Assembly (NCBI GenBank): GCA_015494035.1
Contig: WGBZ01000064.1
Coordinates: 1 to 18,961, forward strand
Direction of reading: 5' to 3'
DNA: 18,961 nt
Source of the DNA: Lysobacterales bacterium
Lineage (GTDB): Bacteria; Pseudomonadota; Gammaproteobacteria; Xanthomonadales; Marinicellaceae
Position 1 is the first letter of the stretch; each line of letters opens with the position of its first letter. The position numbers and the translations under genes are program-made. Shown piece by piece: positions 1-17,295 of the stretch. Under the pieces are notes generated by a model. The model was not told the origin of the DNA, ran no database searches, and saw only the letters and a list, made by a program, of their open reading frames with translations.

Positions 1-155
1 CCTGATCGAATCTGGACGAAGCAGCTTATGCCGGAAATGTCCGAGAACAAGGCGAAGTTCGTGGCCAATAGCGGGCTATTGGCAAGGACTTCAACGCAGT
101 TATCGGACATTTCAGGTGTGAGAAGCGAGTTCACGATTTGATCAGGGCTTCCCTT
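1..155 (+). repeat. Palindromic intergenic repeat, copy 1 (subfamily A)
   Basis: This is an imperfect whole-element palindrome. The outer arms are CTGATCGAATC near base 2 and GATTTGATCAG near base 135. An inner arm pair GAAATGTCCGA (about 34-44) and TCGGACATTTC (about 103-113) is exactly complementary. The centre is a perfect 9-bp stem, GCCAATAGC (64-72) and GCTATTGGC (75-83), with a two-base loop. It closely matches the copy at 4331-4494 and shares its outer ends with the copies at 8019 and 12637. The first few terminal bases (GGAAGCT in other copies) probably lie just left of the window. Its right end runs directly into a half copy in the opposite orientation. Confidence 0.9.
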
Positions 156-212
156 AAACTGAACAATTTTGCACGCCAATCTGCTCGCGCCAGATTCAAT
201 CAGCGCTTCCTA
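154..212 (-). repeat. Half copy of the palindromic repeat (subfamily B), reverse orientation
   Basis: Read on the minus strand from 212 leftwards, this matches the left arm of the copy at 8019-8187: the terminus TTAGGAAGCGCTGATTGAAT, then CTGGCGCGAGCAGATTGGCG, then CAAAATTGTTCAG. The similarity stops at an AAGG sequence, where it joins the terminus of copy 1. The central hairpin and the other arm are absent, so this is a truncated or interrupted element. It ends about 45 bp before the dtd start codon, so any dtd promoter must lie partly within it. Confidence 0.8.
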
Positions 213-256
213 AATGAACTGTGCGAAAATAGGCCTTTGTTCTGGAGCACCGTGAC

Positions 257-703
257 ATGATTGCCCTGATTCAACGGGTGCGCAGCGCCTGGGTCGAAAC
301 CGGACAAGAGCGCATCGCCGACATCGGGCCGGGCTTGCTGGCCTTCATCGGCGTGGAAAAGGCCGACCAACCCGCACAGGCCCACAAGCTGCTGCAGCGG
401 CTGATCAACTATCGGATTTTTGCGGATGAAGAAGGCCGCATGAACCGTTCCCTGCAAGACACTGGCGGCCAATTGCTACTGGTGCCGCAATTTACCCTGG
501 TGGCCGACACCCGCAAAGGCACCCGCCCGGGCTTTTCCCGTGGCGCCGACCCGGAAACCGGCCGGCGACTGTTTGATGAACTGCTGGCCGGCGCCCGGGC
601 CGCCTTGCCTGAGGCCGGCCGGGTTCAGTCCGGTCACTTTGGCGCCGACATGCAAGTGGGCCTGATCAATGACGGCCCGGTGACTTTCCACTTGCAGCAA
701 TAG
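257..703 (+). CDS. dtd: D-aminoacyl-tRNA deacylase
   Basis: The 148-residue product is full length for bacterial DTD (E. coli 145 residues). DTD hydrolyses D-amino acids mischarged on tRNA and acts as a cytoplasmic homodimer. The N-terminus MIALIQRV is diagnostic, the nucleophile-region motif PQFTLVADTRKGTRP has Thr80 at the E. coli position, and the Gly-Pro motif NDGPVTF lies at 138-144. The usual SQFT is PQFT here, so Ser77 is replaced by Pro. The ATG at 257 is preceded by GGAG at 245-248, giving good spacing. The gene stands alone between the repeats and the phosphate genes. Confidence 0.97.
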   Translation: MIALIQRVRSAWVETGQERIADIGPGLLAFIGVEKADQPAQAHKLLQRLINYRIFADEEGRMNRSLQDTGGQLLLVPQFTLVADTRKGTRPGFSRGADPETGRRLFDELLAGARAALPEAGRVQSGHFGADMQVGLINDGPVTFHLQQ

Positions 704-731
704 CAGGACAGCCATCGCCACACAATAAAAC

Positions 732-748
732 GGTGATTTTTTATCACC
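732..748. terminator. Short hairpin downstream of dtd, possible terminator
   Basis: GGTGAT (732-737) and ATCACC (743-748) form a perfect 6-bp stem around a T-rich loop, 29 bases after the dtd stop. There is no U-tract immediately after the stem on either strand, so it is at best a weak intrinsic terminator. It could equally be a protein-binding palindrome upstream of the phosphate genes. Confidence 0.3.
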
Positions 749-910
749 CCAGCCTGAATCACGTCCAAATGGCGGCTTGACCCCAAATTATTAACCCGGC
801 AACTAAATATATGGCTCTCAGCGCTTTTCAGCCACAGCGCATGGCGCCTGGATGGTTTAAAATACGCCGCAAACGAATTGAGTAAAAAACCACCTGATCA
901 GGAGAGCCAC

Positions 911-1585
911 GTGAAAACCTTGATTACCGAATTGCTGGGCACCAGCCCGGTTGCGCCACTGCAAAAACACATCAAAACCGTTTACGAATGCGCCTGCCGA
1001 CTGCCAAAGCTGGTGCGAGCCGCCAATCAGGGCGACTGGGACACCGCGAAAAAACTGCACGAGGAGATCGCACAGCTGGAAAACGAGGCCGACCGGCTCA
1101 AGTTCCAGATCCGCTCCAACCTGCCCAAAAGCCTGTTTATGCCCGTGCCCCGTCAGGACTTGCTGGAACTGGTGCTGGTGCAGGACAAGATTGCAAACAT
1201 CACGCGCGATGTTTCCGGCATTATCATCGGCCGCAAAATGCGTTTCCCCGAAGACATACGCGATGACTACCAGGCCTTCGTGGACCTGTGCGTCGAGGCC
1301 GTTGGCCAGGCCGTGCAAAGCGTCAACGAGCTGGACGAACTGTACGAAACCGGTTTCCGGGGCGCGGAAGTTGAGCTGGTGGAAAAAATGATCCGTAAAC
1401 TGGACGAAACCGAAACCAAAACCGACCGACTGCAATCCCAGATCCGTCGCAAACTGTTTGCCATTGAAGACGACCTGCCCCCGGTTCACGTGATGTTTCT
1501 GTACATCGTCATCGAAAAAACCGGCGGCATTGCCGACATGGCCGAACGCGTTGGCCGTCGCCTTGAGCTGTTGCTGGCCAAATAA
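911..1585 (+). CDS. DUF47 family (TIGR00153-type) PhoU-like phosphate transport accessory protein
   Basis: The 224-residue helical protein has the DUF47 pattern: many heptad-like Glu/Asp-rich helices, including ENEADRLK near the N-terminal third and ETETKTDRLQ in the second repeat, as in PhoU-like metal-binding bundles. Members are commonly encoded directly upstream of Pit transporters and are thought to modulate phosphate uptake; that role is family knowledge. I chose the GTG at 911 because AGGAG lies at 900-904 and the protein then begins MKTLITELLG. A TTG at 878 would add 11 residues with no ribosome-binding site. The Pit gene follows after 33 bp, so the two probably form an operon. Confidence 0.9.
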   Translation: MKTLITELLGTSPVAPLQKHIKTVYECACRLPKLVRAANQGDWDTAKKLHEEIAQLENEADRLKFQIRSNLPKSLFMPVPRQDLLELVLVQDKIANITRDVSGIIIGRKMRFPEDIRDDYQAFVDLCVEAVGQAVQSVNELDELYETGFRGAEVELVEKMIRKLDETETKTDRLQSQIRRKLFAIEDDLPPVHVMFLYIVIEKTGGIADMAERVGRRLELLLAK

Positions 1586-1618
1586 GACCCAAATCCCCGC
1601 ATTCAACAGGACATCATC

Positions 1619-2872
1619 ATGGAATATCAAACCATTTACCTGATTCTGGCTGGCATTTTCGGCTTTTTCATGGCCTGGGGCATCGGCGCCAATGACGTGG
1701 CCAACGCCATGGCCACCTCCGTCGGCTCCAAAGCGCTGACCATCAAACAGGCCATCCTCATTGCCGCCATCTTTGAATTTGCCGGTGCGGTGCTGGCCGG
1801 CGGCGAAGTCACCTCCACCATTCGCAAGGGCATTGTGGACACCAGCAGCATCAGCCACCAGCCAGAACTGCTGATTTACGGCATGCTGGCCTCGTTGCTG
1901 GCCGCCGGCATCTGGTTGTTGATTGCCTCACGCAAGGGCTGGCCGGTTTCCACCACCCATTCCATTGTTGGCGCGGTAGTGGGTTTTGCCGCTGTGGGCC
2001 TGGGGCTGGATGCGGTGAAGTGGAGCAAAGTGGGCAGCATCGTCATGAGCTGGGTGGTTTCTCCCCTGTTGGCCGGCCTGATCGCTTTTCTGATTTTCCA
2101 GAGTGTGCAGTACCTGATTCTGCGCCAGAAAGACCCACTGGCCAAAGCCAAGAAATGGGTGCCCATGTACATGTTTTTCACGGCTTTTATCCTGACCCTG
2201 GTCACCATTAAAAAGGGCCTCAAGCACGTGGGGCTGCACATCAGCACCAACGAGTCCTACCTTTACGCCCTGGGCATTGGTCTGCTGGTGGCCATAGTCG
2301 GTGCGCTGGTGATTGCGCGCATCCAGCCCGACCCGGAAAAGGACAAGGACTTTCATTTCTACACCGTGGAAAAGGTTTTTGCCGTGTTGATGATTGTGAC
2401 CGCCAGCGGCCTGGCCTTCGCCCACGGTTCCAATGACGTGGCCAATGCCGTGGGCCCGCTGGCTGCGGTGGTTTCCACCGCCAAGACCGGCCTGATTAAC
2501 TCCAAATCGCCGCTGGAAACCTGGATTCTGTTTCTGGGCGGCATCGGTATCGTCATCGGCCTGGCCACCTATGGCCGGCGAGTCATAGCCACGGTGGGCG
2601 AAAAAATCACCCACCTGACACCCAGCCGCGGTTTCGCCGCCGAACTGGCCGCCTCCAGCACCATTGTGGTGGCCTCGGCCACCGGCCTGCCCATTTCCAC
2701 CACCCACACCCTGGTGGGGGCGGTGCTTGGTGTGGGCATGGCCCGCGGCCTGAGCGCCATTAACCTGAACGTGGTGCGCGGTATTTTCACCTCCTGGCTG
2801 GTCACCATTCCTGCCGGGGCAGCCCTGTCAGTACTGTTCTTCTATATCCTCAAGGCCATATTCCAGCACTGA
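1619..2872 (+). CDS. Inorganic phosphate transporter, Pit family
   Basis: The 417-residue, strongly hydrophobic protein has about ten predicted membrane helices. It carries both duplicated Pit/PHO4 signatures: GANDVANAMATSVGSKALT (from residue 23) and HGSNDVANAVGPLAA in the second half. Each half also carries a copy of the STTH motif (PVSTTHSIVGAVVG and PISTTHTLVGAVLG), as expected for the inverted-repeat fold. Pit proteins take up metal-phosphate complexes across the inner membrane by proton symport. AGGA at 1608-1611 precedes the ATG. The gene pairs with the DUF47 gene upstream and is followed by a strong terminator. Whether it is PitA- or PitB-like cannot be told from this sequence. Confidence 0.95.
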   Translation: MEYQTIYLILAGIFGFFMAWGIGANDVANAMATSVGSKALTIKQAILIAAIFEFAGAVLAGGEVTSTIRKGIVDTSSISHQPELLIYGMLASLLAAGIWLLIASRKGWPVSTTHSIVGAVVGFAAVGLGLDAVKWSKVGSIVMSWVVSPLLAGLIAFLIFQSVQYLILRQKDPLAKAKKWVPMYMFFTAFILTLVTIKKGLKHVGLHISTNESYLYALGIGLLVAIVGALVIARIQPDPEKDKDFHFYTVEKVFAVLMIVTASGLAFAHGSNDVANAVGPLAAVVSTAKTGLINSKSPLETWILFLGGIGIVIGLATYGRRVIATVGEKITHLTPSRGFAAELAASSTIVVASATGLPISTTHTLVGAVLGVGMARGLSAINLNVVRGIFTSWLVTIPAGAALSVLFFYILKAIFQH

Positions 2873-2924
2873 CTCATCACCGGAACCACCGACCCTTCCG
2901 CGTCACCACTAGCGCCTAAGTGAC

Positions 2925-2943
2925 GTGGAAGGTCACTTTCCAC
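2925..2943. other. Inverted repeat downstream of pit
   Basis: GTGGAA (2925-2930) and TTCCAC (2938-2943) form a 6-bp stem between the pit stop codon and the main terminator. There is no T-tract. It may be a protective 3' hairpin on the transcript or incidental. Confidence 0.3.
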
Positions 2944-2947
2944 CTAC

Positions 2948-2998
2948 AAAAACCCTCCCGGAACACGCCTTGGGAAGGTTTTTGTCTTTTTATTTCAT
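2948..2998 (+). terminator. Rho-independent terminator of the DUF47-pit unit
   Basis: AAAAACCCTCCC (2948-2959) pairs with GGGAAGGTTTTT (2972-2983) apart from one internal C-A mismatch. A second T-rich run follows to about 2998. Stem, loop and U-tract are all present on +. The A-run on the other side means it could also act on -, though no minus-strand gene is nearby. Confidence 0.85.
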
Positions 2999-3048
2999 TT
3001 AACCGGACGTGCGTGACTTCTGGCAGGGGTAAAAACCGACTCAAGGCC

Positions 3049-3054
3049 TATAAT
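3049..3054 (+). promoter_or_regulatory. Candidate -10 box for sixA
   Basis: A consensus TATAAT lies 49 bp before the sixA start codon and just after the upstream terminator, where a promoter is expected. No convincing -35 box is present at 16-18 bp spacing, so this is a candidate only. Confidence 0.4.
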
Positions 3055-3102
3055 AAAATCCTGGGCTAAGGGATGGGTGTGCTGACTTGAGACACAATAC
3101 GC

Positions 3103-3591
3103 ATGCACCAACAACTGATCTTATTGCGACATGGGCAGGCCACTTTCGAGGCCAGCAGCGATTACCTGCGGCCACTGACTGAAGCCGGTCGGGAAAGCGT
3201 GCGGCGCACTGCCGAACACCTGCAAGCGCGCCAAATGCGTGGTCATCCCGTTATTCTCAGTTCCGATACCCTGCGCACCCGGCAAAGCGCCGAAATCCTG
3301 GCCCACCATTGTCAGATTCCCACCGAGCGCATTCACACCGACCCGGAACTCTATGGCGCCACGCCCGGCTTGTGGCTGAAAAAAATTCCCGAGTTTTTGA
3401 AACGCACGCCCGCTAAGGTGCTGGTCTGCATTGGCCATAACCCGACCATGAGCCAGTTAATGGCCATCCTCACCGGACAAACCACCCACATGCGGGCCGG
3501 GGCCGCGGCGCTCATCGATACGCAGTGGCAGGGCAGCGAAGTGGTCTTGCCAGGCACCTTAGTGGATTATTTCGATCCAAATCAGGGATAA
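3103..3591 (+). CDS. sixA: Phosphohistidine phosphatase SixA (histidine phosphatase superfamily)
   Basis: The 162-residue protein is full length for SixA. It opens with the phosphohistidine motif LILLRHGQA (Arg9-His10-Gly11). SSDTLRTRQSAEIL supplies further phosphate-pocket arginines, and CIGHNPTMSQL carries the second catalytic His at 112. SixA dephosphorylates phosphohistidine proteins such as HPt domains or NPr in known species; the substrate here is unknown. The ribosome-binding site before the ATG is weak, with only a GAGA-type sequence. The rhomboid gene follows after 90 bp on the same strand and may have its own promoter. Other small histidine phosphatases share the fold, so the exact subfamily is slightly less certain than the superfamily. 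Confidence 0.88.
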   Translation: MHQQLILLRHGQATFEASSDYLRPLTEAGRESVRRTAEHLQARQMRGHPVILSSDTLRTRQSAEILAHHCQIPTERIHTDPELYGATPGLWLKKIPEFLKRTPAKVLVCIGHNPTMSQLMAILTGQTTHMRAGAAALIDTQWQGSEVVLPGTLVDYFDPNQG

Positions 3592-3681
3592 AATACGCCA
3601 TAATAGCCACAGCAACGCGGTGACCGCGGCCTTGCTACTATGTGTTCCCGCGATAAAACCTGCAGATCAAGGAAAAACGGC

Positions 3682-4323
3682 ATGGCATACCCCAATCAAA
3701 ACCCCTTCATGGACTTTATCCAGCGCATTCCTCCGGTCACGCGCAACCTGCTGTTCGGCATGGTGGCGGTGTTTCTGGCTCAACAGGTCAATGAGTTCTT
3801 CGTCATCAAAAATTTTGCCCTGTGGCCCATTGGGACGCCCTATTTCCGGCCCTGGCAATTAATCACTTATGCCTTTGTGCACGCCAATTTCACCCACCTG
3901 CTGTTTAACGGCTTTGCCATCTGGATGTTTGGCACGCCACTGGAGCAATACTGGGGTTCCAAACGCTACGCCACCTACGTGCTGGCCTGCATCATTGGCG
4001 CGGCGCTGCTGCACCTGATCCTCACCTATGTCATGACCGGCGGGGGCATTCCCATCCCCACCATTGGCATTTCCGGCGCGGTTTACGGCCTGTTGCTGGC
4101 CTTTGGCATGATGTGGCCCGAGCAGCGTATTTTGCTGCTGATTCCGCCAGTGCCCATTAAAGCCAAATACTTCGTGATGATCTATGCGCTGCTGGTGTTG
4201 TGGTCGAGCTTTTCCGGTTATGGCAGCGCCGGCATCGCCCATTTCGCACACCTGGGTGGCATGGTCACCGGCTTTTTGCTGATCCAGTACTGGCGCGGCA
4301 AACCGCCTTTCCGCTTTAAGTAG
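3682..4323 (+). CDS. Rhomboid family intramembrane serine protease
   Basis: The 213-residue, six-helix membrane protein carries the rhomboid signatures: HANFTHLLFNGFAIWMFG in the L1/TM2 region, the catalytic serine in TIGISGAVYG (Ser131), and the catalytic histidine in AHFAHLGGMVTG (His190). Rhomboids cleave membrane-anchored substrates within the bilayer. I chose the ATG at 3682 because AAGGA lies at 3669-3673. An ATG at 3640 would add 14 residues (start MCSRDKTCRS) with no ribosome-binding site. The stop is followed within 10 bp by a palindromic repeat, and the convergent gene beyond it ends inside that repeat. The physiological substrate cannot be inferred. Confidence 0.93.
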   Translation: MAYPNQNPFMDFIQRIPPVTRNLLFGMVAVFLAQQVNEFFVIKNFALWPIGTPYFRPWQLITYAFVHANFTHLLFNGFAIWMFGTPLEQYWGSKRYATYVLACIIGAALLHLILTYVMTGGGIPIPTIGISGAVYGLLLAFGMMWPEQRILLLIPPVPIKAKYFVMIYALLVLWSSFSGYGSAGIAHFAHLGGMVTGFLLIQYWRGKPPFRFK

Positions 4324-4330
4324 GATCCCA

Positions 4331-4494
4331 GGGAAGCTCTGATTGAATCTGGACGAAGCAGATCGTGCCTGAAATGGTCGAGAACAAGGCGAAGTTCGCA
4401 ACCAATAGCTCAGGCTATTGGCAAGGACTTCAACGCAGTTATCGGACATTTCAGGTGGGAGAAGCGAGTTCATGATTCGATCAGCGCTTCCCTA
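4331..4494 (+). repeat. Palindromic intergenic repeat, copy 2 (subfamily A)
   Basis: The termini are GGGAAGCTCTGATTGAATC (from 4331) and GATTCGATCAGCGCTTCCC (to 4492). Inner arms CCTGAAATG (about 4369) and CATTTCAGG (about 4447) are exactly complementary. The centre is CCAATAGC (4402-4409), loop TCAG, GCTATTGG (4414-4421). It is very similar to copy 1. It separates two convergent genes, and its right terminus supplies the TAG stop of the minus-strand DedA-fusion gene. Transcribed from either side it would fold into a long hairpin, so a bidirectional termination or mRNA-end role is plausible. Confidence 0.93.
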
Positions 4495-6540
4495 ATCCTG
4501 GCGTTGTCGCCAGTAACGTTCAGTGGCTTGCTGCCTGAGGGCCTGAAACTGCCCGTCAGTCGCCAGTGCCGCATCCACCGCATCGGTGGGCAGTGGCTGG
4601 CGTGAATCCACGCCCAGAAAGTGAAACAAGCCCCATAAATTTTCAGGCCGATGGCGCAGGATTTCTCCCGAATACAGCGGCAATTCATCCGGTGCCAGGC
4701 GCGCTCCATCGGGCCAGAGGTGAAACACCAGCCAGTGACCGCTGTCATCGGGCTTCTTCATTATCAGGGCTTCCACGTGGCCACGGTTGGTGCTGGCCAG
4801 CACCGGCCATTCCGCCCCGCCAGGTTTCTTCTGCCCCGCCTCGGGCGGTTCGCCCGCTTTCGCCGGGCGCTCGTTCTCACTGCCGCCTTCACTGCTACCG
4901 TGGCTGCTGCCTTCGCTGTCGGGCCCCTTGGCCGAAAGGGCACTTAACAGGCCGCCCCAGGTACGCACCGGCACGTTCTGCCAGCCGGCGGCTTCCAGCG
5001 CCTGCCGTAACCGGGCCACGTCCCCGGCGTAATGGAAATTAAGGTCTTCCCGCGAGCGATTCATCCAGTCCGTGCGTTGCCGGTTTGTGCGCACCTGACC
5101 ATGCAGCCATTGCTCAGTGCTGATGGTTTGCCGGGGTGCCGGGGCATTGCCAAAATCCGTCTGCTGAATATTCAGCCAGATGAGGCTGGCGGCGGCCAGG
5201 TGCACGCTGTAGAAAATAATGGTGATGGGCAACCCCCAAAACTGGCGGCGATTGCGGGTGCGATAGGCCACCCCGACCACAAACGCCCAGAGGCTGCCAA
5301 TAAGGATGGAAATCACCACCTGACCCAGCGACAGTTGCTGGAAAAACAGCTGCGCGAAGGCCACCAGCGCCACTTCAATGGCGGCCAGCACATAGGGCCA
5401 GCTACGTAGGCGCACCGGCAGGGCGCCGGAAACCAGCACTGCCCAGAAGGCCAGCACAGCAGTGAGCCAGGCCAGGTGGCCAAAACCCCAGGTCGACACG
5501 TGCCCGGTGCCCCAGTGGGAAAGCATCAGGGCCAGCAGCCAGCCAAACAGGCCCGCAGCCAGCCAGTGCCAGGCGGCAGTGAACCGCTTGCGATACAGCA
5601 ACCAGGCCAGCACCGCCAGAAACGGTGCGGCGATGGCCGCGTCGTGCCCCAATGCCAGCATGATTTTTATCGGTGGCACCGTCCAGGGTGTGTGGAAAGC
5701 CTGCAGAAAATCCATTAGCTGATGATTCCAGCCGATCAGGGTTTCACTGCTTAGCAAGGCCCAGGTGGACAGGGCCGTGAGCATCAACAAGCCCAGCGCC
5801 AGCGCGGCCAGCGAGCCGGATTCCGGCTTGCGCGGGTCCACCAGCGCCGCGGTGACCTTGCCCAGTACCGGATGCCGCTGGCTCCACAGCAAGGTGCGAG
5901 AAAGCCAGCGATAAGCGGTGGGAATCAGCCAGCGATAGACGTGTGAAATCAGCCACCAGGCAAACCAGACCATGGCCACCAGCGCGGCGGCCAGAATCGC
6001 CAGTTTGCCGGCCACCTGAGCGGTGGCGGCCAATGACTGACTGAGGAAAACCCCGGGCAGAATATAGACCGGCGCCCACAGGATGCTGGCGATGACATTC
6101 ACCACCACGTAGCGTTTGACCGGCATGTCCATCATGCCCGCAATGGCCGGAATAATGGGTCGCACAGGGCCGACAAAGCGGCCCAGGAAAACGCTCATGG
6201 AACCGTATTTGCGGAAAAATTCCCGGCCCTGCTCAATCAGCTTGGGAAAGCGGTTGACCGGCCACATGGACAGCAGTTTCTCGTGATAATGGTGGCCAAT
6301 CCAGAAACTCAACCCGTCACCGACGATGGCGCCCAGGGTGGACCAGAACCAGGCCGTGGCAAAATCCAGCACACCCAGACCCACCAGCGTGCCCAGCCCA
6401 AACAGAATGGCCGCGCCAGGTAGCAGAATTCCCACCAGCAGCAGTGATTCACCAAAGGCAATCAGAAAAATGATCAGGCCCGCCCAGTTGGGGTGCGCTT
6501 GCACCCAGTCAACCAGTGTTTGTAGCCAGTGCGCTTCCAT
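4492..6540 (-). CDS. DedA / PAP2-like / LssY C-terminal fusion membrane protein
   Basis: The 682-residue protein has three parts. Residues 1-200 are a DedA (VTT/SNARE-associated) domain with ESLLLVGILLPGAA and the signature GRFVGPVRPIIPAIAGMM (120-137). Residues about 245-430 are a multi-helix segment placed where DedA fusions carry a PAP2 phosphatase. Residues about 485-682 resemble the soluble LssY C-terminal domain, interrupted by a Gly/Ser/Glu/Pro-rich stretch at 538-577. DedA proteins are linked to lipid-carrier flipping and membrane homeostasis. The PAP2 catalytic motifs look degraded: PSGH is WGFGH, and the SR...H...D motif is AQLFFQQLSLGQVV. The gene lies 35 bp downstream of hemL and is probably co-transcribed with it. 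The start MEAHWLQTLVDWV is typical of the family. Its TAG stop lies in the repeat terminus. Confidence 0.88.
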   Translation of the reverse strand: MEAHWLQTLVDWVQAHPNWAGLIIFLIAFGESLLLVGILLPGAAILFGLGTLVGLGVLDFATAWFWSTLGAIVGDGLSFWIGHHYHEKLLSMWPVNRFPKLIEQGREFFRKYGSMSVFLGRFVGPVRPIIPAIAGMMDMPVKRYVVVNVIASILWAPVYILPGVFLSQSLAATAQVAGKLAILAAALVAMVWFAWWLISHVYRWLIPTAYRWLSRTLLWSQRHPVLGKVTAALVDPRKPESGSLAALALGLLMLTALSTWALLSSETLIGWNHQLMDFLQAFHTPWTVPPIKIMLALGHDAAIAAPFLAVLAWLLYRKRFTAAWHWLAAGLFGWLLALMLSHWGTGHVSTWGFGHLAWLTAVLAFWAVLVSGALPVRLRSWPYVLAAIEVALVAFAQLFFQQLSLGQVVISILIGSLWAFVVGVAYRTRNRRQFWGLPITIIFYSVHLAAASLIWLNIQQTDFGNAPAPRQTISTEQWLHGQVRTNRQRTDWMNRSREDLNFHYAGDVARLRQALEAAGWQNVPVRTWGGLLSALSAKGPDSEGSSHGSSEGGSENERPAKAGEPPEAGQKKPGGAEWPVLASTNRGHVEALIMKKPDDSGHWLVFHLWPDGARLAPDELPLYSGEILRHRPENLWGLFHFLGVDSRQPLPTDAVDAALATDGQFQALRQQATERYWRQRQD

Positions 6541-6575
6541 TCCTTTGTCCTGCGATGAATAGGGTGGGACGGTAT

Positions 6576-7853
6576 CTAGAGCGCGGCAAACGCCTCGTTG
6601 GCCGCCTGCAAGGTGTGGGCCAGGGTTTTTTCATTGTGGGTGCTGGACACAAAACCGGCTTCATAGGCCGATGGCGCCAGGTACACGCCCTTGTCCAGCA
6701 TCAAATGGAAGAAACGCTTGAACGCGTCTTCATCACAGGCCTGCAGATCGGCAAAGTTGCGTATTGGCTGGTCGCAGAAAAACAGGCCAAACATGCCACC
6801 GGCCACTTCACCGTGGAAGGGCACACCGGCGCGGTCGGCAGCCGCACTCAAACCCTCCACCAAGGCCTGGGCGTGTTGTTGCAGGCCGGTGTAAAAACCC
6901 GGTTCACTGATGATGTCCAGCATGGCGCTGCCAGCGGCCATGGCCACCGGATTGCCCGACAGGGTGCCGGCCTGATACACCGGCCCCAGCGGGGCAATGT
7001 GCGACATGATCTCGCGCTTGCCGCCAAAGGCGCCCACCGGTAAGCCGCCCCCGATGACCTTGCCGAAAGTGCTCAAATCCGGCGTTACGTCATACAGTTC
7101 CTGCGCCCCGCCACGCGCCACCCGAAAGCCGGTCATGACCTCATCAAAAATCAGCACCGAGCCGTGTTTGTCGCACTCGGCGCGCAAGTGTTCCAGGTAG
7201 CCCGGTTGCGGCTTGATCATGTTCATGTTGCCGGCAATGGGCTCCACAATCACCGCCGCAATGTTATCGCCTTCTGTGGCCATCACCTCGGAGAGGGCCT
7301 GCGGGTCGTTGTAGGGAATGGTGATGGTCAGATCGGCCACTGCAGCAGGGACACCCGGGGAACCGGGAATGCCCAGGGTCAACACGCCGGAACCGGCCTT
7401 GACCAGAAATGAATCGGCGTGGCCGTGATAACAGCCTTCAAACTTGATGATCTTGTCCCGGCCGGTGTAGCCGCGCGCCAGACGAATGGCGCTCATGGTG
7501 GCCTCGGTGCCGGAATTGACCATGCGCACCATATCCAGCGACGGAATCATGTCACACATTTTCTCAGCCAGCGTCACCTCGCCCGGCGCCGGCGTACCGA
7601 AACTCAGGCCATTATCCACCGCCTGATGCACCGCTTCCAGCACCTGCGGGTTGCCGTGCCCGGCGATCATCGGCCCCCAACTGCCCACGTAATCCACGTA
7701 CTGACGGCCTTCCACGTCCCACAAATACGGGCCTTCGGCTTTCTGGATAAAAACCGGCTCGCCACCCACGCCGCGAAACGCACGCACGGGGGAATTTACG
7801 CCACCGGGAATCACCCGTTGGGCCTGTTCAAAAAGTTCGTGGCTGGTGGTCAT
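6576..7853 (-). CDS. hemL: Glutamate-1-semialdehyde 2,1-aminomutase
   Basis: The 425-residue protein is full length (E. coli 426). It is a class III PLP-dependent aminotransferase-fold enzyme that converts glutamate-1-semialdehyde to 5-aminolevulinate, the first committed tetrapyrrole precursor of the C5 pathway. Visible motifs are [17 protein letters not shown] at the N-terminus, [54 protein letters not shown], and the PLP lysine in [17 protein letters not shown] chose the ATG at 7853 ([10 protein letters not shown]) because TTTGGAG sits 5-11 bases upstream and it matches the family start. An ATG at 7877 would add 8 residues. It is divergent from the GGT-family gene. Confidence 0.97.
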
Positions 7854-7939
7854 GGTTACTCCAAAGGTCATTGACAAATGAATGGGTGGTGATCGCCTGA
7901 GGCAATCCAGGCAGGCGTTAATCGGGTAATTATCTCAGG

Positions 7940-7945
7940 TATAAT
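7940..7945 (+). promoter_or_regulatory. Candidate -10 box upstream of the GGT-family gene
   Basis: A consensus TATAAT occurs in an AT-richer patch of the hemL/GGT divergent region. The corresponding -35 position reads GTTAAT, a poor match. If used, transcription would begin near 7952 and the whole repeat at 8019-8187 would sit in a leader of roughly 290 nt. Confidence 0.35.
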
Positions 7946-8018
7946 CGCGCAATGCCACAGGGCCATGCCCGTCAAGATATCGGCTGCCCCCGAGCCAGGC
8001 CCGGAGCCTTTCAAAACC

Positions 8019-8187
8019 CCTAAGGAGCCTCTGATTGAATCTGGCGCGAACAGATTGGCGTGTAAAATTGTTCAGTGCAAGGCGCAAACCGCACGTAATA
8101 GCAAGGCTATTGCGAAGGTTTGCAACACAGAAATGGACGATTTTACGCCACAAGATGCCGTGTCACGATTCAAGCAGAGCTTCCCTA
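8019..8187 (+). repeat. Palindromic intergenic repeat, copy 3 (subfamily B)
   Basis: The termini are CTAAGGAGCCTCTGATTGAA and, inverted, TTAGGGAAGCTCTGCTTGAA. The inner arm pair is GTGTAAAATTGTTCA (from about 8060) and GACGATTTTACGCC (from about 8136). The centre is AATAGC (8097-8102), loop AAG, GCTATT (8106-8111). Its inner arms differ from those of subfamily A, but they still pair with each other. It lies upstream of the GGT-family gene, probably within its untranslated leader. Confidence 0.92.
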
Positions 8188-8244
8188 AAACACCAATGAA
8201 CCGAATACCCCAAAACAACCACAGCAACCCGCCCAGGACAGCAC

Positions 8245-9735
8245 ATGACACACTCACCTGAAGTGGCCGGCATTGCCGCCGGCAGTCGCCACACCAGCCG
8301 TGCCGGCTTGCACGCCCTGGAAAAAGGCGGCAACGCCTGGGACGCGGCCATTGCTGCGCTGGCCATGGCCTTTGTGGCCGAACCCCTGCTGGCCAGCCCC
8401 GGCGGTGGCGGCTACCTGTTGTCTGATCCAGTCAACGGCGATGCCGAAGTGCTGGACTTTTTCGCCCAGACTCCCGGCCTGTCCCCGGCTGAAAACGGCA
8501 TCAAAACCGAGACGCTGGACTTTCGCCCCATTCACGGCGATTTTGGCGGCACAAAACAGGAATTCCACATTGGCGCGGCCGCCGCTGCGGTGCCCGGCGC
8601 CATCGCCGGTTTGCTGGCCATGCACCGCCAGTACGCCAGCCTGCCGCTGCCCGAACTGCTGGCCGATGCCATTGATGCCGCGCGGGCTGGCATTGAGCTG
8701 GAAGCCAGCCAGCGCTATGTGGCCGACATACTCACGCCCATCCTCCAGTCCAGCAGCCTGACAAGTCAGACCTTTCTGCCCGATGAAAACGGACGCTACC
8801 GCAACCCGGCACTGGCGGATTTTCTGCAAACCCTGGCCGAGCTGGGCTGTGAAAAGGCCCACCACTGGTTCTACCGTGGCGAAGTGGCCGAAGCCATTGC
8901 CGCTGCCCAGGACACAGCCGGGCTGATCCGTTTGCAGGACCTGGCCGACTACGCCGTGATCCCGCGACAACCGTTACGACGGGACTTTCCCGGCTATACC
9001 GTGCTCACCAACCCGCCACCGTCCACCGGCGGCCAGTTGATTGTCGCCGAATTGGCACACGCCCACAGCAACGACGCCCCGTTGCCGCAGCGCCTGGCCG
9101 AAGCCATGCGCGAAGCCGACCGCCTCAAGGGCACGGCCAGCCGCCGTGGCACCACCCACATTTCCGTTTTCGACTGCCATGGCAACCTGGCATCCCTGAC
9201 CGTTTCCAATGGCGAAGGCAATGGTCAGGTCATCGCCCCATTCGGCTTTATGCTGAACAATTTTCTGGGCGAGGAAGACATCAACCCCGGCGGTTTTTTC
9301 CGCTGGCCTGTGGCCACGCGACTGGCTTCCATGATGGCCCCCACCGTGCTGCACAGCGACAGCGGCCACCGTTTCGCCCTGGGTTCGGGTGGCTCCAACC
9401 GCATCAAAACTGCCATTTTTCAGGTTATCTGGCACGCCATGATGGGCGCAGGCAATACACCCGGACAAGGCAAACCGCTTAATTTCGCCATCAGCCACCC
9501 GCGCCTGCATTACGAAAACGGCGTGCTGGATATCGAAGCCGGCTGGCCCGAGGAAGCCATTGCCCAGCTCACCGCCGCCTTCCCCCAGCACCGGCTCTGG
9601 GATCGCCCCAACCTGTATTTTGGTGGCGTGCACGCGGTGCAAACCGGCACCACCAACACCGCCATCGGCGATTTCCGCCGCCAGGGCTGTGGCATTGCGC
9701 GCGACGTGCTCCCCCAATCTGCGGAAACACCGTAA
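8245..9735 (+). CDS. Gamma-glutamyltransferase-family Ntn hydrolase, cytoplasmic type
   Basis: The 496-residue protein is shorter than E. coli GGT (580) and starts directly in the catalytic fold (SRHTSRAGLHALEKGGNAWDAA), with no signal peptide, so it is inferred to be cytoplasmic. The family's autocatalytic cleavage site and nucleophile is the first Thr of GTTHISVFD (Thr303). Downstream are GFMLNNFLGEEDINP, TRLASMMAPTV and the oxyanion-type GSGGSNRI. The RE of the classical LDFRETAP motif, whose Arg binds the gamma-glutamyl carboxylate in E. coli GGT, is replaced (LDFFAQTPG). The substrate may therefore not be glutathione. AGGA at 8235-8238 precedes the ATG. It is followed by hemX after 147 bp on the same strand, and any link to heme synthesis is only positional. 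Confidence 0.88.
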   Translation: MTHSPEVAGIAAGSRHTSRAGLHALEKGGNAWDAAIAALAMAFVAEPLLASPGGGGYLLSDPVNGDAEVLDFFAQTPGLSPAENGIKTETLDFRPIHGDFGGTKQEFHIGAAAAAVPGAIAGLLAMHRQYASLPLPELLADAIDAARAGIELEASQRYVADILTPILQSSSLTSQTFLPDENGRYRNPALADFLQTLAELGCEKAHHWFYRGEVAEAIAAAQDTAGLIRLQDLADYAVIPRQPLRRDFPGYTVLTNPPPSTGGQLIVAELAHAHSNDAPLPQRLAEAMREADRLKGTASRRGTTHISVFDCHGNLASLTVSNGEGNGQVIAPFGFMLNNFLGEEDINPGGFFRWPVATRLASMMAPTVLHSDSGHRFALGSGGSNRIKTAIFQVIWHAMMGAGNTPGQGKPLNFAISHPRLHYENGVLDIEAGWPEEAIAQLTAAFPQHRLWDRPNLYFGGVHAVQTGTTNTAIGDFRRQGCGIARDVLPQSAETP

Positions 9736-9882
9736 AGCAGGCGAGAAGCGTTCGCCCCGTCACTCACCCGTTGTCAGTAAAGGATTGTCCCAAAACGGCC
9801 CGGCAGCGGATTGAACCCGACCTTAGGCAGGCGGTGGTGTAAAATAATACCACCCTCTTCACTTTTTCAGTGGCACACGACC

Positions 9883-11418
9883 ATGAGCAATAAAAAAGAC
9901 AGCGACCAATCCGGCACCGCAGACACCCGCAAAAACGCCGCTGGCAGCCAGGGCGAAGGTTTTGCTGCCAAAGTGGACAGGCTAAGCCAGAACACCTCAG
10001 CCACCGGCGCCAGCGAAAGCCCTGAAAGCACAAACGGCCATAGAGACGATACCAGCGACGCTGACACAGCACACGAGCCCGTGCTGATCACCGAAAGCCT
10101 TCCTGAAAGCGGCCACGCGCCGGTGAAAATCATCAAAAAACGCTCCCTGGCCGGCTTGCTTGGCCTGCTGTTCGGGGCCGCTGCCCTGGGCGGGCTGGGC
10201 TACTGGTATTACCTGCAAAACGGCTGGCACTGGCCACCGGTGGGCACCGCCCGCGTCAAGCACGCCGACCTGCGCGCACTGGAAAAGCGCCTGCGCGATG
10301 ATTTCAATAACCAGCTGAAACAGATTTCCGAACAACTGGCGCAAAATGCCGTTCCCAGCGGAAACGCAAGCACCTCAGCGGCTGACACCACAGTGCTTAC
10401 CGAACAAATCCATACCCTGCAAACACGGCTGGACGAGCTGCAACAGCAGCTGCAATCCCTGCCCCAGGGGCAATCCACGGCCAACCAGCTGGCCGAAACA
10501 AACAGCGCCGATGTCAATGAACAACTGGCGGCCCTGCAGAACCAGCTGCAACAGGCCAGCGAACAGATTCAGGCCCTGCAAATCGCCCTGGCCGAAAGCC
10601 GCGAAACCACCCAGGCGCAATTGGCTCACTGGCAACAACAACTGGAAGCGGCCCTGGCCGAGGGCCCAGCACGCACCGCCGACGCCTCGGGTCTGCCGGT
10701 CAACCCCCAAACCGCGCAGGATCTGAGCCGCCAGCTCTACCTGCAACAGGCCCTCAACGCACTGACGTCTGCCCGCCTGGCGCTGGACGTACAACAGCGC
10801 CCGCAGGCCGCCGCAGTGGCTTTGCAACAGGCCGCCGAAGCACTGGATGCCGCCAAGGCCACCACCGAAGCCCAGGCCGTGCGCGATGCCCTGACGCAAC
10901 TGCAACGCAGCAGCGCGCAAGCCGACCCAAGCCCCGCCACGCTGACCGAAACCATGCAGGCCATCAGCCAATGGCACTGGCAACCACCGGCGCAGGCGAC
11001 CAACAACACCGGCAACAAAAAAGACAGCTGGCTGGGCAAGCTGATTGTGATCAAAAAAATTGACCAGCCACAACAGGCCGCCATGACGCTGGCCGAGGAA
11101 ACCGCGCTCAAAAATCAGGTGCTGGATGCCCTCAATGCCGCGGCCCTGGCTCAACAAAACGGCGATCAGGCACGCTGGCAACAGCAACTGAACCGCGCCA
11201 TCCAGCGGCTGCAGCCCTATGCCGAAACCCAGCCCACCCTGGCTGCGGCCATCAACACACTGGAAACCCTGCGCCAGCACAGCGTCACGCCGCACTGGCC
11301 GGATCTGGAACCCATCCGCCAGGCGGTGGAAAAAGCCATGAATCGCACTGAGCGTCCAGACAACGCAGAAAACAAAGAAAACGAAAACACAGAAAACAGC
11401 GGAAACAGCCCCACATGA
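9883..11418 (+). CDS. hemX: HemX-family membrane protein (heme biosynthesis operon)
   Basis: The 511-residue protein has the HemX layout. A charged, low-complexity cytoplasmic N-terminus (1-85) is followed by a single membrane helix (about 88-110, SLAGLLGLLFGAAALGGLGY). A long Gln/Leu-rich coiled coil (about 128-280) and a helical C-terminal domain containing YLQQALNALTSARLALDV follow. HemX homologues are often mislabelled uroporphyrinogen-III C-methyltransferase, but no methyltransferase motifs are present. I chose the ATG at 9883 (MSNKKDSDQSG). A TTG at 9811 would add 24 residues. The ribosome-binding site is weak. The gene overlaps hemY by 4 bp (ATGA), indicating translational coupling. 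The usual upstream partners hemC and hemD are not adjacent. Confidence 0.88.
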   Translation: MSNKKDSDQSGTADTRKNAAGSQGEGFAAKVDRLSQNTSATGASESPESTNGHRDDTSDADTAHEPVLITESLPESGHAPVKIIKKRSLAGLLGLLFGAAALGGLGYWYYLQNGWHWPPVGTARVKHADLRALEKRLRDDFNNQLKQISEQLAQNAVPSGNASTSAADTTVLTEQIHTLQTRLDELQQQLQSLPQGQSTANQLAETNSADVNEQLAALQNQLQQASEQIQALQIALAESRETTQAQLAHWQQQLEAALAEGPARTADASGLPVNPQTAQDLSRQLYLQQALNALTSARLALDVQQRPQAAAVALQQAAEALDAAKATTEAQAVRDALTQLQRSSAQADPSPATLTETMQAISQWHWQPPAQATNNTGNKKDSWLGKLIVIKKIDQPQQAAMTLAEETALKNQVLDALNAAALAQQNGDQARWQQQLNRAIQRLQPYAETQPTLAAAINTLETLRQHSVTPHWPDLEPIRQAVEKAMNRTERPDNAENKENENTENSGNSPT

Positions 11419-12641
11419 AAAAGATCATCAGCCTGATTGTGGCCGTGGCGCTGGTGGCCACCGCCGCCTGGTTCACCCCCAAACTCATGGCCGACCCGGG
11501 CGTGCTGGTGCTGCGCATGGGCGGCTACCAGATCGAAATGCGCGCGCTGGTGGCCTTTGGCCTGCTGATCCTCGGCATTGTGCTGTTCTGGCTGCTGGTG
11601 TGGCTGATCCGCGCCCCGCGTCAGGCCGCACGCGGGCTGGCCAACCGCCGTGGCCGCAGCCTGTTCAGCAAGGGCCTGCTGGCCCTGTCCGAAGGCCGCT
11701 GGGACAAAGCCGAAAAATGGCTGAGCGCCAGCGCCAAAAACAGCCCCTCGCCGGAACTCAGCTACATGGCCGCGGCTCGCGCCGCCATCGCCAAAAATCG
11801 CCCGGAACAGGCAGAGGAATACCTGAACCTGGCCGAAGGACACATCGACAACCCGCTCACGGTGGATCTGACCCGGGCCGAACTGTGGCTGAAAACCGGA
11901 CAAACCGACAAAGCCATGGCCCTGCTGCAGCGCATCCTCAAAAGCTACCCCAACAACCCGCGCGCCCTGAGCCTGCTGCTGCAAGCCGCGCCGCGCCACA
12001 ACCGCTGGGACGCCATCCGCCAACACCTGCCCAAAGCCCGGCGGCTGGGCCTGCTGCCGCCGAAACAGGCGCAACAACTGGCGCACGAAAGCCTGCAACA
12101 GGCACTGCAAAACCCCAGCGACGAATACGCCCTGCTGAAAACCTGGGCCGAAGCGACCAAAGCCGAAAAAGCCGAGCCGGATAACCTGATCGCCTTCGCC
12201 CGCAGCGCGGCAAGACTGGGTTTAATCAACGAAGCCCTCACGCCGCTGGAAAAACACCTGAAAAAACACGGCCTGGCCAGCCCCGCCGCTGGTCACAACA
12301 ATGACCATAGCAATAACCACAATGACCTGCTGGATTCCTGGGTGGAAATCGCCTCGGCACGGCCCGATCACCTCATCGCCCAGGCCGGCAAATGGCTGAA
12401 AAAACACCCCAACAACGCCACCCTGTACAAAGCCCTGGGCATCGGCTGGATGCAAAAAGGCGACCAGCACAAGGCCCTGGAAAACTTCGAAAAAGCCGCC
12501 CAGCTGGGCAACGACCGCCAGGTCCTGCTGGCCCTGGCCAACCTGCACGAAGCCCTCGGCAACCCCGGCGCCGCGCTGGAATACCACAAACGCGCCAACA
12601 GCCAGCAACCGCTGGTGGTGCACAGCCAACCTGCTTCCTAA
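11415..12641 (+). CDS. hemY: HemY-family TPR membrane protein (heme biosynthesis operon)
   Basis: The 408-residue protein has the HemY_N arrangement: two N-terminal membrane helices (about 4-22 and 43-65), the motif RRGRSLFSKGLLALSEGRW, and then TPR-type helical repeats, for example ALGIGWMQKGDQHKALENFE near the C-terminus. This is the proteobacterial HemY of unknown biochemical role, not protoporphyrinogen oxidase HemY of Bacillus. A His/Asn-rich insert (GHNNDHSNNHNDL) lies near residue 300. It starts inside hemX. Its TAA stop coincides with the first bases of the repeat that follows, so the native C-terminus may have been altered by the insertion. Confidence 0.9.
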   Translation: MKKIISLIVAVALVATAAWFTPKLMADPGVLVLRMGGYQIEMRALVAFGLLILGIVLFWLLVWLIRAPRQAARGLANRRGRSLFSKGLLALSEGRWDKAEKWLSASAKNSPSPELSYMAAARAAIAKNRPEQAEEYLNLAEGHIDNPLTVDLTRAELWLKTGQTDKAMALLQRILKSYPNNPRALSLLLQAAPRHNRWDAIRQHLPKARRLGLLPPKQAQQLAHESLQQALQNPSDEYALLKTWAEATKAEKAEPDNLIAFARSAARLGLINEALTPLEKHLKKHGLASPAAGHNNDHSNNHNDLLDSWVEIASARPDHLIAQAGKWLKKHPNNATLYKALGIGWMQKGDQHKALENFEKAAQLGNDRQVLLALANLHEALGNPGAALEYHKRANSQQPLVVHSQPAS

Positions 12642-12804
12642 GGAAGCTCTGATTGAATCTGGACGAAGCAGGTTGTCGTGAAAAATTGTTCAGTTCAAGG
12701 CGTAAACCGCACGCTATAGCTAGCTATAGTGAAGGTTTCAACGCAGAAATGGACAACTTTACGCCGCAAGATGCCGTGACACGATTCAATCAGAAGCTCC
12801 CTAG
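12637..12804 (+). repeat. Palindromic intergenic repeat, copy 4 (A/B mosaic)
   Basis: The left terminus is CCTAAGGAAGCTCTGATTGA; the right terminus contains GATTCAATCAGAAGCTCC. The left outer module CTGGACGAAGCAG is like subfamily A, but the inner arms GTGAAAAATTGTTCAG (about 12678) and GGACAACTTTACGCC (about 12752) are like subfamily B. The centre is a perfect 16-bp palindrome CTATAGCTAGCTATAG (12714-12729), different in sequence from other copies but still self-complementary. It lies between convergent hemY and hsdR and contains the hemY stop codon. Confidence 0.92.
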
Positions 12805-12819
12805 GAAAGCTTCCCTAGG
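12800..12819. repeat. Extra repeat terminus / 20-bp palindrome at the hsdR end
   Basis: CCTAGGAAAGCTTCCCTAGG is self-complementary at 18 of 20 positions. Its right half, GCTTCCCTAGG, is a second copy of the repeat-family terminus placed directly after copy 4. The hsdR stop codon TAG (12815-12817 on the minus strand) lies in it. It may be the relic of another element deleted down to its end, or a terminus duplication. Confidence 0.7.
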
Positions 12820-15800: not shown

Positions 15801-16036
15801 ACCTGCCTCATGGCCTCCTCAAGCGCCACGGCCGGCATATCGGGGTTAAATCGCCGCAATGCCGAAAGCAACCTGTCCTTCAACACCACATCGGCATAAT
15901 TGGCATTGGCATCCCGCTCCGGCTCTGGCCCGTCTGCGGCAATGTCCGGCCCATAGGCCAGGGAATACCCCAGCCCGGCCAATTGCTGCATGGCCATTTG
16001 CTCTATCCTGTCTTCCGTGGTTTTGATGCTCACCAT
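12815..16036 (-). CDS. hsdR: Type I restriction enzyme R subunit (endonuclease/translocase)
   Basis: The 1073-residue protein is full length for HsdR. The N-terminal nuclease core has [21 protein letters not shown], with Asp148 and Glu162-x-Lys164 as the PD-ExK residues. The SF2 motor has Walker A HTQGSGKS (Lys355), DEAH at 456-459, GFTGTPIEK at about 484-491 and the motif VI-like [12 protein letters not shown] helical C-terminal domain follows. In known systems HsdR needs HsdM and HsdS to recognise DNA, and neither is in this window. The ATG at 16036 lies 7 bp after the fic stop, so the two are co-transcribed. The TAG stop is in a repeat terminus. Key motifs appear intact, so the gene is not obviously decayed. 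Confidence 0.95.
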
Positions 16037-16043
16037 GACACCA

Positions 16044-17201
16044 CTACGCTCCCTTGTTCAAGATATCGAGAAAGGCCTGATATGCATACACCTTGTTTCT
16101 TTGCCGACCCGTCACCTCTCGCACAATACCCATTTTCTCCAGTGCTTCAACACTTTTGGATACCGCCGGGTAGGAAATCTCCAGTTCATTGACCATTGCC
16201 TTAATTGATTGAAGGGGCCGTTGACTGAACTGGCGATGTACTCGCAGGGCTGTACCGGCCCGTCTGCCCAATGGATGGATGCGCTGTTCATCCTGACGCA
16301 TCAGATTAACCAGCCGTCGTGCAGTGTCTACCGCATCCAGCGCTGTCTTTTCCACGCCTTCCAGGAAAAAATCAATCCAGCCTTCCCAGTCACCTTTGGT
16401 TCGCACTTGATTCAAGCGGTCATAATAGGCTTCCCGGTGCGTTTTGAAATATAGACTCAGGTACAACAAAGGCCGGGACAGCATGCCCTCATGGTGCAAT
16501 ATAAAAGAAATAAGCAACCGTCCAAGCCGTCCGTTGCCGTCCAGAAAGGGGTGAATGGTCTCGAACTGTACATGAGCCAATGCCGCCTTGACTAACGTTG
16601 GATACGGCTGTTCAGGATCATGGATAAAACGTTCCAGATCGCCCATGGAAGGCCCCACTTCCTGGGGTGGTGGCGGCACAAAATAGGCATTCCCGGGGCG
16701 GGTGCCACCAATCCAGTTCTGACTGTGGCGAAACTCGCCGGGCTGCTTGCTGCTACCGCGCCCCCTCGACAACAGCTCCTGATGCATCTCCCGCAGCAGG
16801 CGGTTGCACAATGGCATACCGTCGGCCAGCCGCAACAGTCCATGATCCAGCGCCCGAACGTAATTGGACACTTCCACCACATCATCAAAAGGCACGCCCG
16901 GAACCCCGTTTAGCTCAAATTGCAATAAATCCGATAACGAGGATTGGGTGCCCTCGATCTGGGAAGAGAGTACAGCCTCCCTCCGTACATACGAATAAAG
17001 AAAGATTTCCGGCTCAGGCAACAGCAAGGTGATGCTGTCCAATCGACCCAGCGCCAGGGTGGCCCGTTCAAGCAACCGCCGCCGCTCCGGTGTGAAGCGC
17101 AATGGAGGCTCAGGCGGTAACGGCGCTGGCACAAAGGCCTGAACTGTTTCCCCACCAGCCACGCTGACCTGGTAACGCCCTGACCGGCCCCGCTTATGCA
17201 T
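16044..17201 (-). CDS. Fic family protein (class II AMPylase with C-terminal winged helix)
   Basis: The 385-residue protein has an N-terminal Fic_N-type region. An inhibitory-helix motif, SSQIEG (79-84; pattern S/TxxxEG), precedes the Fic core. The catalytic motif is [12 protein letters not shown] (His217-Arg228), with every consensus residue present. A C-terminal winged-helix segment (about 320-385, [17 protein letters not shown]) follows. Such proteins transfer AMP to target hydroxyls; an inhibitory helix upstream of the core is the class II arrangement, as in the Shewanella Fic structure. The gene sits directly upstream of hsdR, a placement often seen near type I loci. AGGG about 7 bases before the ATG is the likely ribosome-binding site. 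The winged helix and a palindrome upstream suggest autoregulation. Confidence 0.93.
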
Positions 17202-17212
17202 AAAAAACCCTG

Positions 17213-17230: not shown

Positions 17231-17295
17231 AAGCACCGGCACTATTAATCGGAAAGTCATTATCTGTTAATAACTCAGATATCGCAAGCAGCTAG

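What the first reader, a model, noticed from the sequence alone, without database searches (positions are those of the whole stretch)
1..12819. ERIC-like palindromic repeat family with covarying arms (four full copies plus fragments)
Copies at 1-155, 4331-4494, 8019-8187 and 12637-12804, plus a half copy at 154-212, share termini (TAGGGAAGCTCTGATTGAATC-like) and a whole-element imperfect palindrome. Inner arms come in two sequence types. Type A pairs a GAAATGTCCGA-like arm with TCGGACATTTC. Type B pairs an AAAATTGTTCA-like arm with GACGATTTTA. Each arm type occurs with its own partner, and the central stem changes sequence (CCAATAGC or CTATAGCT) while staying self-complementary. This pattern of compensatory change suggests selection or mechanism acting on the folded form, either RNA or cruciform DNA. 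I do not recognise the family by name.
Basis: partly seen in the sequence, partly recalled or inferred. Interest (0 to 1): 0.7.

Follow-up and report, generated by a model that had tools for sequence, protein, structure and literature searches.

The report
ERIC-cored mobile hairpin with IS5-type ends
The repeats are about 200 copies of a tiny jumping DNA hairpin whose ends belong to an IS5-type transposon and whose folded core is shared with the classic ERIC repeat of E. coli, which suggests that one hairpin module rides on several kinds of transposon ends in many bacteria.

Summary
The copies belong to a family of about 200 in this 2.1-Mb draft genome, also common in one congener and not found in another. 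It is a MITE: ends GGAAGCTCTGATTGAATC, 4-bp YTAR target duplication, empty sites in congeners. In related genomes such ends flank IS5-family transposase genes, so the mover is IS5-type; none passed the cut-off in this draft. Between subtypes A and B all 18 changed base pairs still pair. The inner core, CAAGGCG-stem-hairpin-stem-CAACGCAG, recurs across Gammaproteobacteria with different stems and different ends, and stands letter for letter in the published ERIC consensus. In the stems G-T outnumbers A-C mismatch on one strand, which points to selection on that strand folded singly, though not in every cut of the data. Arm-to-arm template switching also happens, so not all covariation is selection. 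It is not an ERIC (other ends, target, length) but an IS5-borne relative of one. What the core does is inferred, not shown.

The parts
2..152 (+). type A element, left end lost at the contig start
   Evidence: HMM A 9-161; folds to a whole-element hairpin
153..210 (-). left half of a type B element, reverse orientation, abutting the first copy (limits approximate)
   Evidence: HMM B 2-60, minus strand, 152-210
4332..4491 (+). type A element; flanks CCAG / CTAA; G001 has no element here, G002 has a type B element in the same intergenic gap
8020..8023 (+). target duplication CTAA, left
8024..8184 (+). type B element
   Evidence: no element in the syntenic gap of G001
8185..8188 (+). target duplication CTAA, right
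12642..12800 (+). type B element with the compensated centre CTATAGCT; flanks CTAA / CTAG
12805..12814 (.). short palindromic remnant GAAAGCTTCC between two CTAG, perhaps what is left of another copy after hairpin deletion
   Evidence: remnants of this kind elsewhere in G000 and G002
48..99 (+). ERIC-type core CAAGGCG...CAACGCAG
4385..4438 (+). ERIC-type core
8078..8130 (+). ERIC-type core (right loop CAACACAG)
12696..12746 (+). ERIC-type core

Best explanation
The repeat is a non-autonomous DNA transposon (MITE) of 157-162 bp. SHOWN: it has inverted ends GGAAGCTCTGATTGAATC, duplicates a 4-bp YTAR target, is present or absent at orthologous sites in congeners, and lies almost wholly between genes. 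INFERRED: a transposase of the IS5 family (NCBIfam transpos_IS5_4 kind) binds the ends and cuts and pastes it in trans; the autonomous partner is lost from, or missing in, this draft. Between the ends it carries a hairpin core with asymmetric internal loops (CAAGGCG facing CAACGCAG) and freely varying stems. The same core is in the ERIC consensus and in MITEs with other ends across Gammaproteobacteria. INFERRED: stems stay paired by two processes, arm-to-arm template switching and selection on one strand folded as a single strand (RNA, or single-stranded DNA), and the loops are kept because something binds them. The element is selfish; no benefit to the host is indicated.
For: Mobility: 70 of 156 copies have identical 4-bp flanks against 22.8 in shuffles, but only 1 of 156 match at 5 bp; empty sites in G002 and G001. 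Mover: G420 holds a 1,220-bp IS with a 330-aa open frame hitting NF033581 at 307.5 bits (cut-off 140), ends GGAAACACTGATCAATGG / GATTAAATCAGTGTTTCC (13 of 18 paired) and TAAG on both sides; two of the four MITEs of that genome printed begin GGAAACACTGATTAATG. G454 holds a contig-edge gene of the same family ending in GGAAGCTCTGATTTATTC, near to its MITEs. L247 is a 495-bp remnant with these ends, TTAG on both sides and an IS5 C-terminus, E 4.1e-14. Core: pattern in 133 of 274 class genomes, reversed control in 33 by my count; 22 cores give 184 compensated cells against 60.7 shuffled, 86.7% paired against 30-46% when slid; a model of 8 cores from 5 other genomes finds all 4 window cores, E 3.8e-8 to 8.2e-4. 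Strand: + fold more stable in 156 of 156 copies; stems GT 237, AC 133 over 58 distinct cores, sign 41:8 with 9 ties; in type A singletons are GT 13, AC 23 but variants shared by 4 or more copies are GT 14, AC 1.
Against: No NF033581 transposase over the cut-off in G000 (best 87.7 bits) and none at all in G002; the two PF01609 genes of G000 have no matching pair of ends. The G-T excess is absent if loop columns are counted (154 vs 154) and not clear among shared variants of type B (9 vs 7). Four copies show template switching, so covariation needs no selection in every case. No orientation bias towards tandem genes (25 vs 23). The replication-strand bias (65 vs 25) was not seen in two other genomes (11 vs 9). 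The ERIC link by covariance model is weak: 13.3, 10.4 and 9.2 bits, none with the short-core model. The loop letters are invariant because the search pattern demanded them; in the A/B family, where it did not, they are 96-100% conserved except one position at 81%.
Confidence: 0.75

Rival explanations
1. The covariation is purely mutational: hairpin arms are copied onto each other by template switching during replication, and nothing selects the fold.
For: 4 of 153 copies have the left arm replaced by the exact complement of the right arm (18-bp perfect stem, all others 10 or less), the right arm serving as template each time. Short hairpin remnants suggest that the palindrome is processed in vivo.
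Against: No copy of 156 carries the same loop letters on both arms (exact-match test). Template switching cannot favour G-T over A-C mismatches on one strand; in type A singletons show no such excess while shared variants do (type B does not help).
Confidence: 0.25
2. It is a cis-acting regulatory RNA element kept because it helps its host (mRNA stability or termination), as reported for ERIC in Yersinia.
For: Strand-specific fold; often close behind stop codons (median 26 nt from the gene upstream in the same direction); ERIC alters transcript levels in Yersinia enterocolitica (passage in PMC10969869).
Against: Equal numbers along and against tandem genes (25 vs 23), sites differ between congeners, and a congener with 99% completeness gave no match.
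Confidence: 0.1
3. Core and ends have one common ancestor; the ends merely diverged, so nothing was captured by different transposon systems.
For: Several of the sampled genomes have ends that are recognisably IS5-like (G329, G454, G255, G420).
Against: Other ends look unrelated: TATACCC.. (ERIC-like), AACCTCAGGTTTGGATAA, AAGGAGTACATTGATTGGGCGACATA, GGGCACATCTCATAATA, TAGTGTACTG (by eye). Target duplications of these were not measured.
Confidence: 0.3
4. A REP/REPIN-like hairpin moved by an HUH (RAYT) transposase.
For: Palindromic, intergenic, high copy number.
Against: 4-bp target duplications and 18-bp inverted ends like those of DDE (IS5) elements. RAYT genes were not searched for.
Confidence: 0.03

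Closest known systems
ERIC (IRU, RU-1)
   Same: Imperfect whole-element palindrome, intergenic; the published consensus contains CAAGGCG and CAACGCAG exactly, 60 nt apart (Table 1a of PMC2759123 read as reverse complement); an inner GGAG..TTAC..GTAA..TGA hairpin shared by eye with the long-core relatives.
   Different: 157-162 bp instead of 127; ends GGAAGCTCTGATTGAATC instead of TATACCC..; 4-bp YTAR duplication instead of TA (TA: passage in PMC2759123); different stem sequences and inner loop.
MITEs of IS5-family insertion sequences
   Same: Ends, 4-bp YTAR duplication, no transposase ORF; IS5-type transposases with such ends in related genomes.
   Different: The inside is not a recognisable deleted IS but an ERIC-type core. 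Of seven IS or remnant loci checked for the core, six gave none and L422 gave one degenerate match, taken as chance.
YPAL/RU-2 of Yersinia (about 168 bp)
   Same: Size and long hairpin.
   Different: The printed RU-2 sequence, read by eye, lacks the two loop motifs.
QMITE1/2 of Coxiella
   Same: Gammaproteobacterial MITEs in tens of copies with stable folds.
   Different: QMITE2 has 7-11 nt duplications, QMITE1 is 300-400 bp (PMC5896051, abstract passage); sequences not compared.

Membership tests
ERIC | core with CAAGGCG and CAACGCAG facing each other | tested here: met
ERIC | 127 bp | tested here: not met
   157-162 bp between end motifs
ERIC | terminal sequence TATACCC... and TA target duplication | tested here: not met
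ERIC | recognition of E. coli ERIC by a covariance model of the superfamily | tested here: inconclusive
   right strand and place but 9-13 bits with R1 (filters off), nothing with R2
MITE of an IS5-family element | short, no transposase gene, terminal inverted repeats | tested here: met
MITE of an IS5-family element | 4-bp target duplication (YTAR recalled for IS5) with empty sites | tested here: met
MITE of an IS5-family element | IS5 transposase gene with the same kind of ends | tested here: met
   in G420, G454 and L247, not in this genome
MITE of an IS5-family element | autonomous partner in the same genome | tested here: not met
   draft 88% complete
REP/REPIN | RAYT transposase and GTAG/CGTC tags | not tested
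   no RAYT search was run
Rfam families | match at gathering score | tested here: not met
   0 matches in the window; with E up to 10 three weak matches to unrelated families at the A copy (best 18.8 bits against a cut-off of 40) and none at a Pseudoalteromonas copy

The most novel reading that the evidence does not exclude
CAAGGCG/CAACGCAG is a portable structured module, selected as one folded strand and bound by a conserved host factor, that unrelated transposon end systems (IS5-type, ERIC-type TA, and others) have each captured. ERIC would then be one enterobacterial member of a class-wide superfamily, and its mobility is explained by whichever transposase fits the ends.
Probability: 0.35. 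Interest if true: 0.82.

Novelty: new variant of a known kind. Interest (0 to 1): 0.62.

Why it matters
ERIC is a standard typing target (recalled), yet the passages I saw name no transposase for it; [quoted passage not shown] The family described here carries ERIC's core on ends with an identifiable kind of mover, so what moves such elements and what their hairpin does become testable. The core also offers a structure-based search target that Rfam 15 did not match.

Tried and rejected
Parent IS in the own genome: two PF01609 genes rejected. L159 is an IS5 (transpos_IS5_3) element with its own ends ATAGTGTCGTCAC and CTAG on both sides, read by eye, lying beside a MITE end. L161 has no MITE end within 4 mismatches in its locus (IS1182-like is my recall). 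Exact 18-mer ends in viral contigs: 3 matches, no inverted partner, taken as chance. MITE end in plasmids: no match. Whole element in phages: no match; type B core in plasmids: no match. G-T versus A-C with loops included: no asymmetry. Gene-orientation bias: none. Replication-strand bias: 65 vs 25 in this genus (66 vs 24 with raw skew), 11 vs 9 in G255 and G337, so not general. Sampled stretches of G361 and G208 gave no core, 60 kb of G409 gave two. The E. coli record could not be searched whole.

Row handling: of 188 HMM hits, 160 were full length (span of 155 or more model positions) and 156 had 30 bp on both sides and were used; 3 of these 156 had no core within one mismatch. One search used 36 families that I picked by hand; one search kept 76 rows with a paired outer arm, 58 of them distinct; one search used 80 distinct cores without that filter. 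One search used 22 of the 25 cores listed; L211, L212 and L364 were left out because the core picked there had a mismatch in the right loop. The 22 cores include several from one source (G329, Pseudoalteromonas, the window). One search tested orthologous sites with only the part of G002 held here: 18 rows, of which I read 3 as empty (L006, L032, L088), 2 as same type, 3 as other type and 10 as unclear, mostly for tandem copies. The genome counts of 38 (four or more matches) and 33 (control matches) and about 46 control genomes are my own counts from the tables.

Full report
WHAT IS THERE. The window is the start of contig C64 of a 2,140,903-base draft genome in 386 contigs, 88% complete. Copy 1 is cut by the contig start; the half copy at about 153-210 is the left half of a type B element in reverse orientation. 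Searches with one A and one B copy found many more; only 40 candidates were scored each time. In 20 contigs taken by number (151,721 bases) there are 14 copies, about 200 per genome. The end motif with YTAR, at most one mismatch, occurs 258 times in this genome, 165 times in congener G002 and 0 times in congener G001 (99% complete); in the sample of 200 genomes (this one and relatives) 6 match.

IT IS A TRANSPOSABLE ELEMENT. From the ends inward the element is GGAAGCTCTGATTGAATC ... GATTCGATCAGAGCTTCC, 157-162 bp. The 4 bp on either side are most often CTAA, TTAG, CTAG or TTAA and are identical in 26 of 70 type A and 44 of 86 type B copies, against 8.4 and 14.5 when the right flanks are shuffled; at 5 bp 0 and 1 match. 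Gene order around the window is kept in G001, where the gaps at 4332 and 8024 hold no element. At a G002 site whose flanks are 88% and 92% identical, the empty site has one TTAA where G000 has GTAA-element-TTAA. Of 18 G000 copies compared with the part of G002 held here, I read 3 as empty in G002, 2 as the same type, 3 as the other type (window copy 4332, and copies in L041 and L081) and 10 as unclear. Sixteen abutting pairs occur among 162 full copies, 10 of them A with B in the same direction. Two of 101 copies lie inside an ORF call.

WHAT MOVES IT. A clostridial 495-bp remnant flanked by TTAG encodes the C-terminus of an IS5-family transposase. Searching 14 genomes with NF033581 gave a match in 7 and one over the cut-off in 4. 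In G420 the 330-aa open frame lies in a 1,220-bp IS with TAAG on both sides, whose ends (GGAAACACTGAT..) match those of two of the four MITEs printed; in G454 a contig-edge gene ends in GGAAGCTCTGATTTATTC (the end beside TTAG, read inward), close to its MITEs (GGAACCTCTGATTTATTC). G000 has none over the cut-off and G002 none. I conclude that IS5-type transposition moves the family and that the local partner is lost or unassembled. That IS5 elements use YTAR is recalled knowledge.

THE CORE AND ITS RELATIVES. A distant-match search placed only the centre of the element in Pseudoalteromonas megaplasmids, within elements with other ends. The pattern CAAGGCG-N32..60-CAACGCAG then matched 133 of 274 genomes sampled from the class; by my count the reversed control matched 33, and 38 genomes (own included) have four or more matches while no genome has more than three control matches. 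In a phylum sample it matched 98 of 200 (control about 46), including ERIC-like sequences, by eye, in family f183 and many long-core relatives in f171 (families are unnamed). The stems of these matches differ widely. Over 80 distinct cores, chance matches included, every free position among the first seven of both stems shows more mutual information than any of 500 shuffles. On an alignment of 22 cores, 25 of 27 pairs have double changes, with 184 compensated cells against 60.7 in shuffles, and 86.7% paired cells against 30-46% when slid. A model of 8 long cores from 5 other genomes recognises all four window cores, the next hit having E 0.56. The published ERIC consensus holds both motifs exactly (Table 1a of PMC2759123). 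Individual E. coli ERICs are recognised only weakly or not at all. A typed ERIC core finds a median of 12 places in 5,375 of 5,426 E. coli genomes. Within other genomes the core sits between different ends: IS5-like, TATACCC (as in ERIC), AACCTCAGGTTTGGATAA, AAGGAGTACATTGATTGGGCGACATA, GGGCACATCTCATAATA, TAGTGTACTG (read by eye; their target duplications were not measured). No core was found in the IS copies themselves (one degenerate match elsewhere in L422 was taken as chance).

WHY THE ARMS COVARY. Between the A and B consensus, 59 pair columns are shared: 41 are identical, 14 change on both sides, 4 on one side, and all 18 still pair. Within types, paired double changes exceed independence (20 vs 5.9 in A, 40 vs 16.3 in B; related copies inflate this). 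Two causes are visible. First, template switching: four of 153 copies carry a left arm that is the exact complement of the right arm. Second, selection on one strand: the CAAGGCG strand folds better in 156 of 156 copies (about -80 against -57 kcal/mol). Over 58 distinct cores G-T wobble beats A-C in the stems 237 to 133, sign 41 to 8 with 9 ties. With loop columns included, in a hand-picked set of 36, it vanishes, 154 to 154. In type A the excess sits in variants shared by four or more copies (14 vs 1) and not in singletons (13 vs 23), so it is not a simple mutation bias; in type B it is weak (9 vs 7; singletons 16 vs 15).

ORIENTATION. Copies show no preference relative to tandem genes (25 vs 23); convergent gaps are used more than divergent ones (25 vs 10; background 52 vs 41). 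In G000 and G002 contigs of 5 kb or more the better-folding strand lies on the C-rich strand in 65 of 90 copies (22 of 27 contigs with a majority; third-position skew corrected for coding strand), i.e. away from the lagging-strand template if, as usual, G-rich means leading. Two other genomes show 11 vs 9, so I treat this as a local result. Short palindromic remnants between YTAR sites occur at two loci each in G000 and G002 and none in G001, where the reversed control matched once per strand; one more lies at 12805-12814.

PLACE AMONG KNOWN THINGS. It fails the length, end and target tests for ERIC and passes the core test; it passes the tests for an IS5-driven MITE except for a partner in the same genome. 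What I saw of the literature: PMC2229807 (first of three parts of the text), and passages only of PMC2759123, PMC2267715, PMC10969869 and PMC5896051. They place ERIC in Enterobacteriaceae and Vibrionaceae and, in what I saw, name no transposase for it. My searches for a wider ERIC-core family in print listed no paper on it by title; one search found 26 papers holding both motif strings, of which 10 were listed and none opened. Zo 2011 on ERIC in Gammaproteobacteria, cited in PMC10969869, is not held and may bear on this.

Noticed in passing
L159 1473-2325 (G000:C174): An IS5-family (transpos_IS5_3) element with two overlapping frames, ends ATAGTGTCGTCAC and CTAG on both sides, lies directly beside the left end of a MITE copy.
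   Followed up: partly
window 12815-18790, minus strand: A long HsdR-like ORF (1073 aa), a Fic-like ORF (385 aa) and two further ORFs follow the last repeat; it looks like a type I restriction locus or island boundary. Names are recalled from the sequences, no family search was run.
   Followed up: no
G597, G598, G612: Genomes listed as same phylum but not same class carry 58, 35 and 15 matches to the core pattern, so the module may reach beyond Gammaproteobacteria; the stems were not seen.
   Followed up: no
L229, L239, L243, L260 (Halothiobacillus): Larger elements (272-350 bp) with the same ends carry two hairpins; three of the four show CAAGGCG...CAACACAG within one mismatch of the core motifs.
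   Followed up: partly
window 4332 versus G002 C84: Type A in one species and type B in the other at the same intergenic site, also seen in L041 and L081: the type at a site turns over, perhaps through tandem insertion and loss.
   Followed up: partly
L285, L308 and others: Elements whose first end is itself a 27-bp palindrome of the GGAAGCTCTGATTNAATCAGAGCTTCC kind, followed by a second end and YTAR on both sides; no ERIC core seen in these two. Similar 27-bp palindromes lie in L230, L245, L255, L272, L280 and L297.
   Followed up: no
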